This document shows, piece by piece, positions 56,929-62,814 of a stretch of DNA of 62,966 bases. Numbering within the stretch: position 1 is the stretch's first letter; each line of letters starts with the position of its first letter. The notes beneath the pieces are model-generated. The model had not been told where the DNA came from. It made no database searches and worked only from the letters and a program-made list of their open reading frames with translations. Position numbers and translations under genes: made by a program. Location: NCBI GenBank assembly GCA_903869365.1, contig CAIPYV010000074.1, positions 1-62,966 on the forward strand, written 5' to 3'. Source of the stretch: an uncultured Chlorobiaceae bacterium (GTDB taxonomy: Bacteria > Bacteroidota > Chlorobiia > Chlorobiales > Chlorobiaceae).

Positions 56929-59028
56929 ATGAGTATTTCTTCTGTTCATGAGGCACATCTTCTGATGCAGTACATCAGCGATGCGGTGGGTTCAATTCGC
57001 GATCCTGATGAGCTTTTCCGAACAGTTACTGATAAACTGCGCCTTGTCTTTGAGTTTGATTCTGTTGTGATTATCACCTTTGACAAAGAGCGACGGTATA
57101 GCAACGTTATTTTTGAAATGCTTCGATTTCATGTTCCTGAAGGTATCGCTCGCAAAAAAAGAGCTGTTGCGGGGTCATGGATAGAGCCGCACATGACCGA
57201 TCTGTCTGTTTCGGTTTTCAGCATTGAAGAGGTTCTTGACCGTTATCCGGCAGATTATCCAGTGCCGCATGTGCTTTATGATGTTGGTATGCGTCAGGTT
57301 GTGTTGTCGCCGCTTCGGACAGGTGGAAAGATTATAGGGTTTCTAAATTTTGTGTCAAAAGATGAAAAAAACTGGTCGGAGAGCGATAAGGAACTTCTTG
57401 CCACCCTTTCATCCCCAATTGCCGTTGCGGTAAGCAATACTCTTGCGTACGAGGAGCTACGGCTTCGTGAAGCTCAGACTGTTATGCAACTTGCGGTCAA
57501 CAATGCCCTTCTTACCATAAAGGACCGGAACAGGATGCTCCTCGCGGTTTGTGAGCAGATAGATAAACTGGTGCCCTGTACTTTTCTTGGTATTCGTGTT
57601 ATGGGTGATGATGGCAAGTTTCACATTTTCGATAATTTCATGCGTGAAGACGGGAGTGGCTTTTTTCCTGTCTCTTTTGCTGAAAAGCTTGATATTACCA
57701 ATTTTGAAGAGATAGCAAAAGAGAGCTTTTCATTGATTACAAATCCTGGATGTTATGGCGGAGAGGCATTTCTTCGACTTTGCGCAAAGTATCGCATATT
57801 AGCGCTTGCCAGAGACAAATTTGGTGTCTGCTCTCTGATAACTGTTCCGTTATGGGATACGCCGGGAAGTCGTGCAGGTCTTATTATTTCTGATACTTCA
57901 CGTTCTTTTGATGAGCACGACCAAGCAACGGTAAGCCTGATTGTCCCCCAACTCTCACTTGCTCTGCAGAACTATCTGGCATTTGAGGAGATCGATGAGC
58001 TTCGCCGAAAGCTCGAAGGCGAACGTACTTGTCTTATCGAGGAAATCAAGGCAGGGCATAACTTTGAAGAAATCATTGGCAACAGTATACCTCTGAAGTC
58101 GGTACTGCATCGTGTGAGTCAGGTCGCTCCTACTGATGCCACCGTATTGATCCAGGGAGAAACAGGTTCCGGAAAAGAACTTTTTGCCAGGGCGCTTCAC
58201 AATCTTTCAAACCGCAGGCAGCGTGCATTGATCAAGATCAATTGTGCAACACTGCCGGGGGCACTGATTGAATCGGAGCTTTTTGGTCATGAAAAAGGGA
58301 GTTTTACCGGTGCCATAGAACGGCGGATCGGTAAGTTTGAGCTGGCTGAAGGAGGTACTATTTTTCTTGATGAAATCGGTGAGCTGCCGCTGGAACTTCA
58401 GGCAAAACTGCTTCGTGTGCTTCAGGAGCGTGAGCTTGAACGTCTTGGTGGAAAAATGGTGATCAAGGTTGATGTGCGGGTTATTGTCGCAACGAACCGT
58501 GATCTTGCAAAGGAGGTTGCTGAAGGGAGGTTTCGGGAAGATCTTTTTTTCCGGCTCAATGTTTTTCCTCTTGCCATTCCGTCACTTTGTGAACGGCGCG
58601 ATGATATTCCCATGCTTGCAGCACACTTTGCCGCAAAATTTTCAAGGGAGTTCGGCAAACCGCTCCTCATGTTCAAGGAGCGTGATATGCAACGTCTGGT
58701 TGCCCGTGAGTGGAAGGGTAATATTCGTGAACTTGCACATCTTGTCGAACAGGCGGTTATTGTTTCTGAAGGGCCATCGCTTGATTTTTCATCGATTCTT
58801 TCTTTTCCTGAGTCTGTTGTTGATCGTGCTCTCAAGGGAGAGGTTAAAACCATGCATGATTTTACTCTTGATGTTGCCTTGATGGAAAAAGAGCTGATTC
58901 TTGATGCCCTCGAACGTTCAAACGGCAGGGTGAGTGGTAGCGGCGGAGCTGCTGAGCGGCTTGCCATGCACCCGAAAACGCTCTATTCACGTATTGAAAA
59001 GCTCCGTATCCACAAGCGATATCAATAG
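56929..59028 (+). CDS. Sigma-54-dependent transcriptional activator (GAF-AAA+-Fis, FhlA/NorR type)
   Basis: This 699-residue protein has two GAF-like sensory domains (about 10-175 and 185-350), a short linker helix, the AAA+ sigma-54 interaction domain with Walker A GETGSGKELFARA (about 409-421), the loop GSFTGA (about 457; the usual form is GAFTGA), Walker B GGTIFLDEIGEL, and a C-terminal Fis-type helix-turn-helix (GSGGAAERLAMHPKTLYSRI, about 665-685). It contacts sigma-54 RNA polymerase through the loop and remodels it using ATP. The divergent efflux operon with a -24/-12 promoter is the obvious target. The ligand sensed is unknown; FhlA and NorR relatives sense formate and nitric oxide. 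Confidence 0.93.
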   Translation: MSISSVHEAHLLMQYISDAVGSIRDPDELFRTVTDKLRLVFEFDSVVIITFDKERRYSNVIFEMLRFHVPEGIARKKRAVAGSWIEPHMTDLSVSVFSIEEVLDRYPADYPVPHVLYDVGMRQVVLSPLRTGGKIIGFLNFVSKDEKNWSESDKELLATLSSPIAVAVSNTLAYEELRLREAQTVMQLAVNNALLTIKDRNRMLLAVCEQIDKLVPCTFLGIRVMGDDGKFHIFDNFMREDGSGFFPVSFAEKLDITNFEEIAKESFSLITNPGCYGGEAFLRLCAKYRILALARDKFGVCSLITVPLWDTPGSRAGLIISDTSRSFDEHDQATVSLIVPQLSLALQNYLAFEEIDELRRKLEGERTCLIEEIKAGHNFEEIIGNSIPLKSVLHRVSQVAPTDATVLIQGETGSGKELFARALHNLSNRRQRALIKINCATLPGALIESELFGHEKGSFTGAIERRIGKFELAEGGTIFLDEIGELPLELQAKLLRVLQERELERLGGKMVIKVDVRVIVATNRDLAKEVAEGRFREDLFFRLNVFPLAIPSLCERRDDIPMLAAHFAAKFSREFGKPLLMFKERDMQRLVAREWKGNIRELAHLVEQAVIVSEGPSLDFSSILSFPESVVDRALKGEVKTMHDFTLDVALMEKELILDALERSNGRVSGSGGAAERLAMHPKTLYSRIEKLRIHKRYQ

Positions 59029-59048: not shown

Positions 59049-59474
59049 TTATGGCAACACGTTGAGCTTACTATGATAACGGGCGATGATTGACGAGTCT
59101 CCTTCCCATGAGCGCCAATGCTTCAGTGCAATCTCGCCGATGCCGATTTTCTTACCCTGAAAGATGAAGGTAACATTACCTCCGGAACCCACACCAATGC
59201 CATCAGCCGTATAGTGCGGTTCAGTGGCAAGTGCGCTTATATATTGCTTGTCGTAGTGATCAATGGTCCAGCAGTATCCTGTGGTTGCGTTTTCCGGCAG
59301 ACTTATTCGGGCGGTATCGCCGAGTCGGATATCTACAGTTCGGTTATTATCGGTTTGAAAGAGTTCATGCTCCATTCTTGTATAGATATCCGGGTTGGTG
59401 CAGGAAGTTAGGCCAGTGGAATACGGAAGAGACGCAACCATCAGCATAGCAGTTATTCTGATTTTTCCGTTCAC
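59049..59474 (-). CDS. Chagasin-like (I42) cysteine protease inhibitor lipoprotein
   Basis: This 141-residue protein starts at a GTG. An N-terminal signal with lipobox LTSC suggests an outer-membrane or periplasmic lipoprotein. The chagasin loops can be read: LPENATTGYCW (NPTTGY loop), GVGSGGNVTF (GGG-like loop) and KHWRSWEGD (RPW-like loop). Chagasin-family proteins inhibit papain-like (C1A) peptidases by wedging these loops into the active site. The next gene upstream is a papain-like protease 11 bases away, strongly suggesting a cognate pair. Assignment is from motifs; overall similarity is unchecked. Confidence 0.75.
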   Translation of the reverse strand: MNGKIRITAMLMVASLPYSTGLTSCTNPDIYTRMEHELFQTDNNRTVDIRLGDTARISLPENATTGYCWTIDHYDKQYISALATEPHYTADGIGVGSGGNVTFIFQGKKIGIGEIALKHWRSWEGDSSIIARYHSKLNVLP

Positions 59475-59485
59475 TTGAACATGGT

Positions 59486-60190
59486 TTAAAGTGTTATGCC
59501 ATAACTTTCGTTAAAGAATGCCGCATCGATATAGGCTTCGCTGGCGTAAGCGAAACCCTGATCACCCCATGTTGTTCCCCAGCTATTGCGGACAATGAAG
59601 CGATTGTCAGCGGTGTAGCCAACAATAGCAACGCAGTGCCCGCCGCGAGTCGTGCCGGGTTGAAAGGTATCAAGCCTGCCTTGGGTTGCTGTGGCGTGAT
59701 CCCAGGTTGCATCGATATTCAATGCTGCCTGAATCGGGCCGTGGACCGCGAGCCATGTGCGCCAGTTGTTAACATTGTTTCCGAGGTTGAAATATGAGGC
59801 AATCTTGCGAGTTGCAGCGCTTGCATAGAAGGTTTTTTCGTCACCAGTGTAGAGGTAGTTCGCGATATGGAACGGGAGGAGGGTGTCAAGCACCGCGCCT
59901 TTATTTTTCAGGATATCAACGGCGCCCTTCAGTGAGGTGCCGGCTGACTCGATGAAGGTGTTAGGATTTGGACGCGGGGATATACAGCGGTTGTCGTCAG
60001 TTATTTGGGCATGGATTGTATACGTTTGTATTGACGGTGAGTAGCTATAAATTTTGGCCTTCGCGGAATTTAGTGGAATAACGGAATAAAATGGCATGCT
60101 GGAGTTTCTCATGTATCCGATTGCACTTATAACGGCTTCGCATGTGGGATTGCTGCGTTTTTTGAAGGCGTTGCCTGATGATTGTAGCCC
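59486..60190 (-). pseudogene. Papain-like (C1A) cysteine protease, 5'-truncated
   Basis: The frame is open from 60190 after an in-frame TAA (60191-60193). The active-site His region GGHCVAIVGYTADN and the Asn region VRNSWGTTWGDQGF of papain-like peptidases are intact. The only plausible catalytic Cys, in NPTCEAVISAIGYM (codon 60142-60140), lies 10 residues upstream of the first ATG (60112), and no ATG, GTG or TTG precedes it in this frame. The gene has therefore probably lost its start, signal peptide and propeptide through deletion or frameshift. From ATG 60112 a 208-residue product without the Cys could still be made. It sits beside the chagasin-like inhibitor. Confidence 0.7.
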
Positions 60191-60600
60191 TTATGATGTG
60201 GTTGCGTGCTTTATTTAAATTTTCAGCTTTCTTTTTTGGAGATAATTGATCATTATATGCTTGAGCGATATGAGAAAGAGTATTGGACTCTTCAATGAGG
60301 ATCTGTTTTGGTTTTGATTGAGAGAGAACAACAAAATCAGAATATGCAGGTAGAAAGTGAGTCCTATATAATTTGAATATTTCTTCTGGAATTTTTGAGC
60401 GCTTTGTCTATTTCTTTCTCTGGATCGTATGACTTCAATGGCAGAATGCTTCCTCTGCAACTTGAAATATCTTCATACAATAACTTGATTTTCAGTTTTT
60501 TACCCAATTTATGCTCAATAAACGCATTGATTTCTTCGATCGTTTGAAAAGATGCAGGGCTTTTGCCCATTATTGTTTCAAAAATTTCGCCGGTAGGCAT
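60045..60600 (-). pseudogene. Frameshifted ORF of unknown function
   Basis: A 78-residue ORF (60600-60364) starts at MPTGEIFETIMGKSPASF after a strong AGGAGAAGGG site and stops at NIQII. Near 60388, at an A5 run, the +1 frame continues in coding-like sequence without its own start: KIPEEIFKLYRTHFLPAYSD, later QAYNDQLSPKKKAENLNKAR and IIRATIIRQRL, open to 60045. Removing one A joins the two into about 184 residues. The tail overlaps the truncated papain-like gene, so the 3' end may be a deletion junction. I do not recognise the family. Sequencing error or true programmed frameshifting cannot be excluded. Confidence 0.5.
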
Positions 60601-61040: not shown

Positions 61041-61265
61041 TCAATTCTGTTGTTGAAGGCGTTCCCCTATCCATATTTTTATCACCGACTGGCGCGATAC
61101 CCCGAGACGGGTTGCCTCCTTGTCGAGCGAATCGATCATCCAGACTGGAAAATCGACATTCACCCTTTTATGCTGTTGTTTTATCCGACGCGCCTTGTTC
61201 AGATCAAGGTAAGGTGTGATATCTGAACCATCATCAAACGCTTTGTCAAATTCTTCTGTTTTCAT
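61041..61265 (-). CDS. brnA: BrnA-like antitoxin
   Basis: This 74-residue protein has a short acidic N-terminus (EEFDKAFDDGSDITPYLDL) and a ribbon-helix-helix-like C-terminal part (KRVNVDFPVWMIDSLDKEATRLGVSRQSVIKIWI, read in sections). That is the BrnA pattern: toxin-neutralising N-terminus and DNA-binding C-terminus. Its start lies 20 bases inside the toxin gene, so the pair is translationally coupled with the toxin first, the normal brnTA order. BrnA with BrnT represses the operon promoter. Confidence 0.85.
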   Translation of the reverse strand: MKTEEFDKAFDDGSDITPYLDLNKARRIKQQHKRVNVDFPVWMIDSLDKEATRLGVSRQSVIKIWIGERLQQQN

Positions 61266-61515
61266 ATAGTGCCACCTCCTCAGTGCGAGATCTCCTTACT
61301 GAAATTATTCTTATGGTTTCTCCTCTGAAGGTTACTATTCCAGACCAGTATCTGTCTGAAATCGTGCCGATAACAATCAACCGAGGTTCTCCCACTGTTT
61401 TTGCTGGAATTTCAACAAGATCATCATCATCCCACAATACTTGAGCCTCAATAAAGTCGATATTGTGCTTTATCTTATTCAGTCTGCTTTTTTCAGGATC
61501 AAACTCAAATTGCAT
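61246..61515 (-). CDS. brnT: BrnT-like toxin (ribonuclease)
   Basis: This 89-residue protein begins MQFEFDPEKSRLNKIKHNIDF, and has the central WDDDDLVEI and the C-terminal RIISVRRSRTEEVALYE, all standard BrnT landmarks. BrnT is a RelE-like endoribonuclease that halts growth when unopposed. The catalytic-type Arg pair in SVRRSR is intact, so the toxin appears functional. It overlaps brnA by 20 bases. It lies in a region of gene decay and mobile DNA, a common place for such modules. Confidence 0.87.
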   Translation of the reverse strand: MQFEFDPEKSRLNKIKHNIDFIEAQVLWDDDDLVEIPAKTVGEPRLIVIGTISDRYWSGIVTFRGETIRIISVRRSRTEEVALYENRRI

Positions 61516-61555: not shown

Positions 61556-61811
61556 AGAAATGTCCAAAAGCAAAAAGTTAAGGTCGACGTCTTGGTAAAA
61601 ATGGGGTATGGCGGTTCAATAAAAGATGCAGGCGAAGCGGTCGGCGGGAGCGGTGACGGAGGTATTGACGGTATTATCAAGGAGGATCGTCTGGGTCTTG
61701 ACATTATCTACATTCAGGCCAAACGATTGGAAAACAACGTCTTGCGCCCAGACATACAGAAGTTTGCAGGGGCGTTGCAGGGCAAGCGGGCCCAGAAGGG
61801 AGTTTTTATTA
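61556..61811 (+). pseudogene. Mrr-type restriction endonuclease remnant, cut by an IS630 insertion
   Basis: About 85 codons of an Mrr catalytic domain are readable: VDVLVKMGYGGSIKDAGEAVG, then SGDGGIDGIIKEDRLGLD and IYIQAKR, giving the Asp and Gln-x-Lys active-site residues, followed by KFAGALQGKRAQKGVFI. In-frame starts are only an internal TTG (61592) or ATG (61601), because a TAA precedes the frame, so the N-terminal half is gone. The C-terminus is lost at the IS boundary near 61808-61811, where the frame runs into the element. Intact Mrr proteins cut methylated DNA. No rest of the gene appears on the right side of the IS. Confidence 0.75.
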
Positions 61812-61819
61812 AGCGCTCA

Positions 61820-62395
61820 TCAAAAAGTCATTACGTAATCCTTACCAAAACCGTCCAAGATTTTGCAGACATCTTCTTCAAGGGTTTTTTCATTTCGCGT
61901 CTTGAATTCCATCAATTCATACTTCAGCTTGTGCCAATACTTTTCAATTCGATTGAGTTCTGGACTGTAAGGTGGCAAGAAATAAAGAGTCAGCCCCTTT
62001 TGAGCCAGCACCTTTAACATCGGTTGAACCGCTTTTGCTTTATGGAATGACGCATTGTCCAGAATGACCGTTAAAGGTTTGCCCACGTAGTTCATCAGCA
62101 GACCAAGAAAGCCGATAAATATAAGTGAATTTGTTGGTTGCCACAGCGCAACTGAGAACAAATCACCCGTTGAGAGCATAGCTCCGATGACATTCAGGCG
62201 TTTTCCCCGGTTGGCGTCAATCTTGTGACATTTGCCTATTGGAGTCCAGGCGCTACGGTTTGGCTGGGCCAGTGCGAAACCAGTCTCATCGACAAAGGCT
62301 AAGATCCTATCATCGCGTTCGACTTCATCTTTCATCAATTCTATTTCTAACTGTGCTTGTCTAAACCAGACTTCATCTCGTTTTTTTTTAACCAC
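61820..62395 (-). CDS. IS630-family transposase, ORF B (DDE catalytic part)
   Basis: This 191-codon frame carries the DDE triad: FVDETGF, LTVILDNASFHKA and PPYSPELNRIEKYWHKLK. The N-terminal residues VKKKRDEVW overlap ORF A in the -1 frame. It is expected to be translated by frameshifting from ORF A at the A9 run (62381-62389) rather than from its own GTG. It cuts and joins element ends at TA sites. All catalytic residues are intact. Confidence 0.9.
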   Translation of the reverse strand: MVKKKRDEVWFRQAQLEIELMKDEVERDDRILAFVDETGFALAQPNRSAWTPIGKCHKIDANRGKRLNVIGAMLSTGDLFSVALWQPTNSLIFIGFLGLLMNYVGKPLTVILDNASFHKAKAVQPMLKVLAQKGLTLYFLPPYSPELNRIEKYWHKLKYELMEFKTRNEKTLEEDVCKILDGFGKDYVMTF

Positions 62396-62814
62396 AGGCG
62401 TGTACGTTTCCAGACAAAACCAAGTGCTTTCAACGCATTAGTTACGGTACCAACGCTCACGTTTACATTGCACTCTTCCTTTAACCGAGCCACTATCGCT
62501 GGAGCTGTCAGTGCTTCCTTTTCCGCCCAAATCGTGATCTGTTCAAGGTGAATGGCGTTTAGTTTCGGAGGTGCGCCGCTTCGATGCATGTCATATAAAG
62601 CGGCAAACCCCTTTGATAACCAGTTCTTACGTCGGTCATAAACCGTATCGATATTCAGGTCTTGCAATGCCACGATGGCCTTTGCACTCAACCCGTCGTT
62701 GAAATATAACAGTGTTTGAGCCCGATGACGTGCTTGCCAATCTCTTCCTTTTGCCACAACTTTTTGTAGCTTTGCACGATCGTCGGCAGATAATTCAAAG
62801 TAACTTAACTTCAT
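62347..62814 (-). CDS. IS630-family transposase, ORF A (helix-turn-helix part)
   Basis: This 155-codon frame starts MKLSYFELSADDRAKLQKVV and has tandem helix-turn-helix segments (HRAQTLLYFNDGLSAKAIVAL, then AIVARLKEECNVNVSVGTVTNAL), the DNA-binding half of IS630 transposases. It ends 9 residues after the slippery A9. A -1 shift there joins it to ORF B to give about 331 residues, the usual length for the family. Confidence 0.9.
   Translation of the reverse strand: MKLSYFELSADDRAKLQKVVAKGRDWQARHRAQTLLYFNDGLSAKAIVALQDLNIDTVYDRRKNWLSKGFAALYDMHRSGAPPKLNAIHLEQITIWAEKEALTAPAIVARLKEECNVNVSVGTVTNALKALGFVWKRTRLWLKKNEMKSGLDKHS
62381..62389 (-). promoter_or_regulatory. Probable -1 ribosomal frameshift site
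   Basis: On the minus strand GGTT is followed by nine A and then C. ORF A reads tta-aaa-aaa-aac and ORF B reads gtt-aaa-aaa-aaa, one base back, so an A-AAA-AAA slip to -1 links them. This is the mechanism known in several IS families. Confidence 0.7.

What the first reader, a model, noticed from the sequence alone, without database searches (positions are those of the whole stretch)
59049..60190. Chagasin-like inhibitor next to a papain-like protease
A lipoprotein with the three chagasin loops lies 11 bases from a C1A protease. Inhibitor-protease pairs of this type are rare in bacteria and may represent a secreted protease with its self-protection partner.
Basis: partly seen in the sequence, partly recalled or inferred. 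Interest (0 to 1): 0.6.

Follow-up and report, generated by a model that had tools for sequence, protein, structure and literature searches.

The report
Protease inhibitor beside its broken protease
A green sulfur bacterium keeps an intact inhibitor of papain-type proteases next to what was once its partner protease, but in this genome the protease gene has lost its front half, with the catalytic cysteine, so the pair is real in relatives and broken here.

Summary
The inhibitor (59474..59049, minus strand) is a genuine chagasin-family (I42) protein: Pfam PF09394 at 63 bits, chagasin in the PDB by sequence, only I42 folds at the top of a structure search, and all three inhibitory loops present (NATTG, GSGG, RSW). 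It has a signal sequence with a lipobox-like cysteine.

The neighbouring "C1A protease" is not intact. Only its last ~160 residues (59971..59486) are protease. Intact relatives are ~270 residues; their first ~107, including the catalytic Cys and oxyanion-hole Gln, are missing here and nowhere else in the genome. The ORF's start codon and first ~47 codons come from unrelated DNA that includes an ISL3-type transposon end. No other papain-family gene was found in this genome.

The pairing is real elsewhere. All 16 full-length proteases of this subfamily in 86 Chlorobiaceae genomes have I42 directly downstream, in several genomic contexts; Roseateles has the pair too. A second genome (G877) also has an eroded protease beside a full-length inhibitor, and three keep the inhibitor with no protease.

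"Secreted protease" is not supported: no intact relative shows an N-terminal signal sequence. T6SS effector/immunity was tested through TssC: absent. This is a new member of known families, with a decayed partner.

The parts
59049..59474 (-). Intact chagasin-family (I42) inhibitor CDS, GTG start, 141 aa, predicted lipoprotein
   Evidence: PF09394 63.1 bits; PDB chagasin E 1.4e-8; AF2 model pLDDT 83, core blocks mostly above 90; top Foldseek hits are I42 structures
59400..59474 (-). Signal-like N-terminus MNGKIRITAMLMVASLPYSTGLTSC, Cys25 in lipobox position
   Evidence: Read from sequence; hydrophobic stretch, with a Cys in the equivalent region of nearly all relatives (not G877); no signal-peptide predictor was available
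59274..59291 (-). Inhibitory loop L2, NATTGY (chagasin NPTTGF)
   Evidence: Alignment A3; motif definition PMC2607524, PMC5014320
59178..59189 (-). Inhibitory loop L4, GSGG (chagasin GxGG)
   Evidence: Alignment A3
59106..59114 (-). Inhibitory loop L6, RSW (chagasin RPW/F)
   Evidence: Alignment A3
59475..59485 (.). 11-base gap between protease-remnant stop and inhibitor start
   Evidence: equivalent start candidates lie 11 bases downstream in G012, G1011 and G899
59486..59971 (-). C-terminal ~160 codons of a papain-family (C1A) protease: remnant with the active-site His (59636-59638) and Asn (59585-59587), without catalytic Cys or Gln
   Evidence: PF00112 profile 73-203 of 220; up to 81% identity to intact relatives over 156 columns; breakpoint
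59972..60112 (-). Start codon and first ~47 codons of the chimeric ORF, not protease sequence
   Evidence: No homology to intact proteases; residues 1-109 of the ORF have pLDDT under 50 in the model
60055..60111 (.). Degenerate terminal sequence of an ISL3-family insertion element
   Evidence: 76-79% identical to terminal segments beside ISL3 transposase genes at contig ends of G016 and G021; neighbouring ORF has PF14690 Zn_ribbon_ISL3
60165..60600 (-). Remains of a two-gene overlapping unit of unknown function (60600..60364, then a partner in another frame cut off near 60165)
   Evidence: Complete counterpart in G014:C11 (L079); no Pfam match
56929..59028 (+). Convergent neighbour: GAF + sigma-54 activator + Fis-type HTH regulator, the normal 3' neighbour of the inhibitor in this genus
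   Evidence: Pfam; synteny

Best explanation
This locus is the decayed form of a two-gene protease/inhibitor unit. In the ancestor, a single-domain papain-family protease of ~270 aa without a signal sequence lay directly upstream of a chagasin-family lipoprotein that would plug the protease's active-site cleft with loops L2, L4 and L6. In this genome a rearrangement joined an insertion-element fragment into the protease gene at ~59971, removing the first ~107 codons with the catalytic Cys and oxyanion-hole Gln, and separated the unit from its usual upstream aminotransferase gene. The protease is dead. The inhibitor is complete and most likely still folds, is exported to the cell envelope, and can bind papain-type enzymes. 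With no other papain-family gene found in the genome, it is now an orphan: either a leftover, or a guard against papain-type proteases from outside or from neighbouring cells. Shown here by computation: inhibitor identity and fold, loss of the protease's front half, conserved pairing elsewhere, absence of another PF00112 gene. Inferred: export, inhibitory activity, present role.
For: I42 identity: PF09394, PDB chagasin E 1.4e-8, Foldseek top hits almost all I42. Truncation: PF00112 match starts at profile 73; relatives match only from residue 112; DNA homology stops there against paired relatives, refined to ~59971. Missing half not elsewhere. Only one PF00112 match in G000. Insertion-element junction. 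Pairing: all 16 full-length proteases in 86 Chlorobiaceae have I42 downstream on the same strand, in at least three further contexts in the sister genus, and in Roseateles. Second decay case: G877 (L127), 112-aa eroded remnant next to a full-length I42. Inhibitor without protease: G010, G024, G026. Orphan inhibitors are known in Pseudomonas (PMC5014320).
Against: An assembly error at the junction cannot be excluded without reads, though the missing half lies on no other contig of a 99.99% complete assembly. Truncation looks recent: remnant pN/pS against relatives is 0.17-0.21, like intact copies, so survival of the inhibitor in this genome says little about selection on it. Inhibitory activity is not tested. 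Other cysteine-protease families (C1B, C2) were not searched in the genome.
Confidence: 0.85

Rival explanations
1. Working self-protection pair: an active secreted protease and its periplasmic inhibitor.
For: Intact pair architecture in 16 Chlorobiaceae genomes and in Roseateles. Among those genomes no full-length protease was found without the inhibitor, while inhibitor without intact protease occurs in five, as expected if losing the inhibitor first is harmful.
Against: In this window the catalytic Cys and N-terminal domain are gone. Intact relatives show no N-terminal signal sequence. Homologues in Nitrosomonadales (L027) and Microvirga have no I42 nearby.
Confidence: 0.04
2. Effector/immunity module: the leaderless protease is injected into other cells and the envelope-anchored inhibitor protects kin; the window keeps an orphan immunity gene.
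For: Leaderless protease plus exported inhibitor; inhibitor retained after protease loss in several lineages; sporadic distribution and an HGT-like link to Roseateles.
Against: No TssC (PF05943) in any of 10 genomes tested, carriers of intact pairs included. No trafficking domain on the protease. Other injection systems were not tested.
Confidence: 0.1
3. The inhibitor mainly targets proteases from outside (as in Pseudomonas), and the protease neighbour was incidental, so its loss does not matter.
For: Most I42 loci in the Pseudomonadota sample have no recognisable C1A next door (26 of 29); Pseudomonas Cip1 inhibits plant proteases and most Pseudomonas lack C1A (PMC5014320); G000 has no other PF00112 gene.
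Against: Strict adjacency of protease and inhibitor in 16 of 16 Chlorobiaceae cases, in several contexts, is hard to explain as incidental.
Confidence: 0.25

Closest known systems
Chagasin / ICP family, MEROPS I42 (chagasin 2NNR, amoebiasin/EhICP2 3M86, Pseudomonas aeruginosa ICP 2WGN)
   Same: Pfam family, Ig-like fold model, NxTTG, GxGG and RxW loops
   Different: Pro of L2 is Ala (NATTG) and Pro of L6 is Ser (RSW); has a signal sequence with a lipobox-like Cys, which protozoan chagasins lack
Cip1 of Pseudomonas syringae (PMC5014320)
   Same: Exported bacterial chagasin; most Pseudomonas genomes encode no C1A protease, and here no C1A gene is intact
   Different: Cip1 acts on plant proteases; here the inhibitor sits beside a protease remnant and the relatives have an intact adjacent protease
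Xylellain-type bacterial C1A peptidases (PDB 3OIS)
   Same: Best PDB match of the intact subfamily profile (E 1.7e-13); short single-domain C1A
   Different: The window copy lacks the N-terminal half with the catalytic Cys

Membership tests
Chagasin family I42 (PF09394) | Profile match over curated cut-off | tested here: met
   63.1 bits vs 27.2
Chagasin family I42 (PF09394) | Three loops: NPTTG, GxGG, RPW/F | tested here: met
   NATTG, GSGG, RSW in window; P to A and P to S changes shared by close relatives
Chagasin family I42 (PF09394) | Ig-like beta fold of the family | tested here: met
   AF2 model; Foldseek ranks 1-15 are all I42-fold structures
Chagasin family I42 (PF09394) | Tight-binding inhibition of C1A peptidases | not testable with these tools
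   needs an assay
Papain family C1A (PF00112), window copy | Catalytic Cys and oxyanion-hole Gln | tested here: not met
   region absent; break at ~59971
Papain family C1A (PF00112), window copy | Catalytic His and Asn | tested here: met
   GGHC and NSWG retained
T6SS effector/immunity pair | T6SS sheath gene (TssC) in carriers | tested here: not met
   0 of 10 genomes
Bacterial lipoprotein | Signal sequence ending in a lipobox with Cys | tested here: inconclusive
   GLTSC in window and a Cys in most relatives by eye; G877 lacks the Cys; no predictor was run

The most novel reading that the evidence does not exclude
Chlorobiaceae carry a two-gene module in which a leaderless papain-type protease is always paired with an envelope lipoprotein inhibitor, used in self/non-self or lysis-related protection; the protease is repeatedly lost while the inhibitor is kept as an orphan immunity factor, and this window catches that loss in progress.
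Probability: 0.15. Interest if true: 0.6.

Novelty: new member of a known kind. Interest (0 to 1): 0.33.

Why it matters
Roles of bacterial chagasins are mostly unknown, and whether they control their own or foreign proteases is an open question in the literature (PMC5014320, PMC2784779). Chlorobiaceae offer a natural series: intact pair, eroded protease plus inhibitor, and inhibitor alone, in closely related genomes, where the question can be tested. It also warns against reading the ORF in this window as an active protease.

Tried and rejected
T6SS effector/immunity: no TssC in 10 genomes. Missing N-terminal half elsewhere in the genome: not found. Another PF00112 target in the same genome: none. 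First taken as a frameshift, the two overlapping ORFs at 60165-60600 proved to be a conserved two-gene arrangement (G014). Pair on phages or plasmids: no match in phage records; two plasmid matches, the better one (Microvirga) without an annotated I42 neighbour; viral contigs hold distant C1A relatives but none with I42 nearby. NCBIfam gave nothing. Selection on the inhibitor after protease loss: dS too high or counts too small to decide. Gain versus loss in G010, G024 and G026 was not resolved: their boundaries are clean and nearly the same. Structure of the complex could not be predicted with the tools at hand.

Full report
What is there. ORF 59474..59049 (-) is an I42 inhibitor. Eleven bases upstream ends an ORF (60112..59486) that matches the papain family only over profile positions 73-203 of 220.

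The inhibitor is sound. It matches chagasin in the PDB by sequence (2H7W, E 1.4e-8). Its AlphaFold model (30-row alignment, mean pLDDT 83, low only in the signal region and moderate around residues 80-100) finds amoebiasin/EhICP2, chagasin and Pseudomonas ICP structures first. Loops L2, L4 and L6 read NATTG, GSGG and RSW. The motif definitions and the roles of T31, T32 and W93 are from PMC2607524; bacterial use of the same motifs is from PMC5014320. The two prolines of the canonical motifs are replaced, as in close relatives; PMC2607524 gives P30 a structural role. The N-terminus looks like a signal sequence with a lipobox-like Cys; a Cys occurs there in nearly all relatives, G877 being an exception.

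The protease is not sound. Intact members of the subfamily (~270 aa) carry Q-E/G-x-TGSCVGW around the catalytic Cys. The window ORF aligns only to residues 112-271 of their profile. DNA homology of the whole locus to paired relatives stops at one point, 59967; with the closest protease lineage (G1069, G1011) it extends to about 59971. Beyond lie 57 bases resembling the end of an ISL3-family element, seen beside ISL3 transposase genes at contig ends in G016 and G021, then a cut-off two-gene unit that is complete in G014. The start codon of the annotated-looking ORF (60112) therefore lies at the edge of the transposon fragment. A search for the missing half found only the remnant itself, and no other PF00112 gene was found in the genome. 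The usual upstream neighbour, an aminotransferase, lies on another contig without the protease. In the model of the remnant, residues 1-109 have pLDDT under 50 (shallow alignment).

The pair elsewhere. In 86 Chlorobiaceae genomes there are 16 full-length proteases of this subfamily. All 16 have an I42 gene downstream on the same strand (15, the sixteenth, G873). In the window's genus the unit sits between an aminotransferase and a sigma-54 activator gene; in the sister genus it sits in at least three other settings, next to what look by eye like a methyltransferase gene, amino-acid ABC transporter genes, or a ketoacyl-ACP synthase-like gene. Roseateles oligotrophus also has it. So the two genes travel together. 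It is not universal: relatives in a Nitrosomonadales MAG (L027) and on a Microvirga plasmid lack an I42 neighbour. In a sample of 398 Pseudomonadota genomes, 29 have I42 and three of those have a recognisable C1A next door; the C1A profile I built for this may miss divergent proteases. In 296 Bacteroidota genomes, 33 have I42, and about half of the loci fetched have a C1A neighbour, some of them larger C1A proteins of other subfamilies.

Decay. Five genomes of the genus keep I42 at this locus type without an intact protease. G000 and G877 have remnants with different lesions; G877 retains only ~112 codons of eroded frame. G010, G024 and G026 have none; in G026 the inhibitor's last residues also differ. 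The clean, similar boundaries in those three leave gain versus loss open; the two remnants are unambiguous losses. The G000 remnant still has 81% identity to G1011 and low pN/pS, so its truncation is recent and the survival of the inhibitor here is weak evidence of selection. Tree resolution within the genus is poor.

Mechanism and compartments. The expected action, blocking the active-site cleft by loops L2/L4/L6, follows from chagasin-peptidase structures described in PMC2607524; it is inferred here. A puzzle is location: no intact protease shows an N-terminal hydrophobic stretch, while the inhibitor does. PMC10380794 notes that signal peptides are absent from intracellular prokaryotic C1A peptidases. 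The unit may guard the envelope against protease released by lysis or exported by an unknown route. A T6SS route was tested through TssC and not found in carriers.

Conclusion. What is left is most likely an orphan inhibitor. I file the inhibitor as a new member of a known family, and the pair as a conserved but little-described unit of Chlorobiaceae; I found no paper describing it in the open-access library searched.

Noticed in passing
61041..61515 (-): BrnT-like toxin gene (PF04365) followed by a CopG-type antitoxin gene (PF12441); the DNA is present in many genomes of the genus at 74-85% identity.
   Followed up: partly
61592..62017 (+): Fragment of an Mrr-type restriction endonuclease (PF04471) whose frame runs into the transposase region at its 3' side.
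   Followed up: no
61820..62814 (-): IS630-like transposase in two overlapping frames (HTH part 62814..62347, DDE_3 part 62395..61820) at the contig end.
   Followed up: no
L079 1009-1768 (G014:C11) and window 60165-60600: Two small overlapping genes of unknown function with no Pfam match, conserved as an overlapping arrangement in two genomes.
   Followed up: partly
L114 808-2505: A Pseudomonadota protein joining an ImmA/IrrE-type M78 peptidase domain with an I42 domain, directly followed by a C1A protease gene.
   Followed up: no
L012, L014, L020, L135: Larger C1A proteases (about 670-680 aa open frames), some with weak DUF346 or lectin-like repeat matches, also followed by I42 genes: a second kind of C1A-I42 pair in the same genus.
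   Followed up: partly
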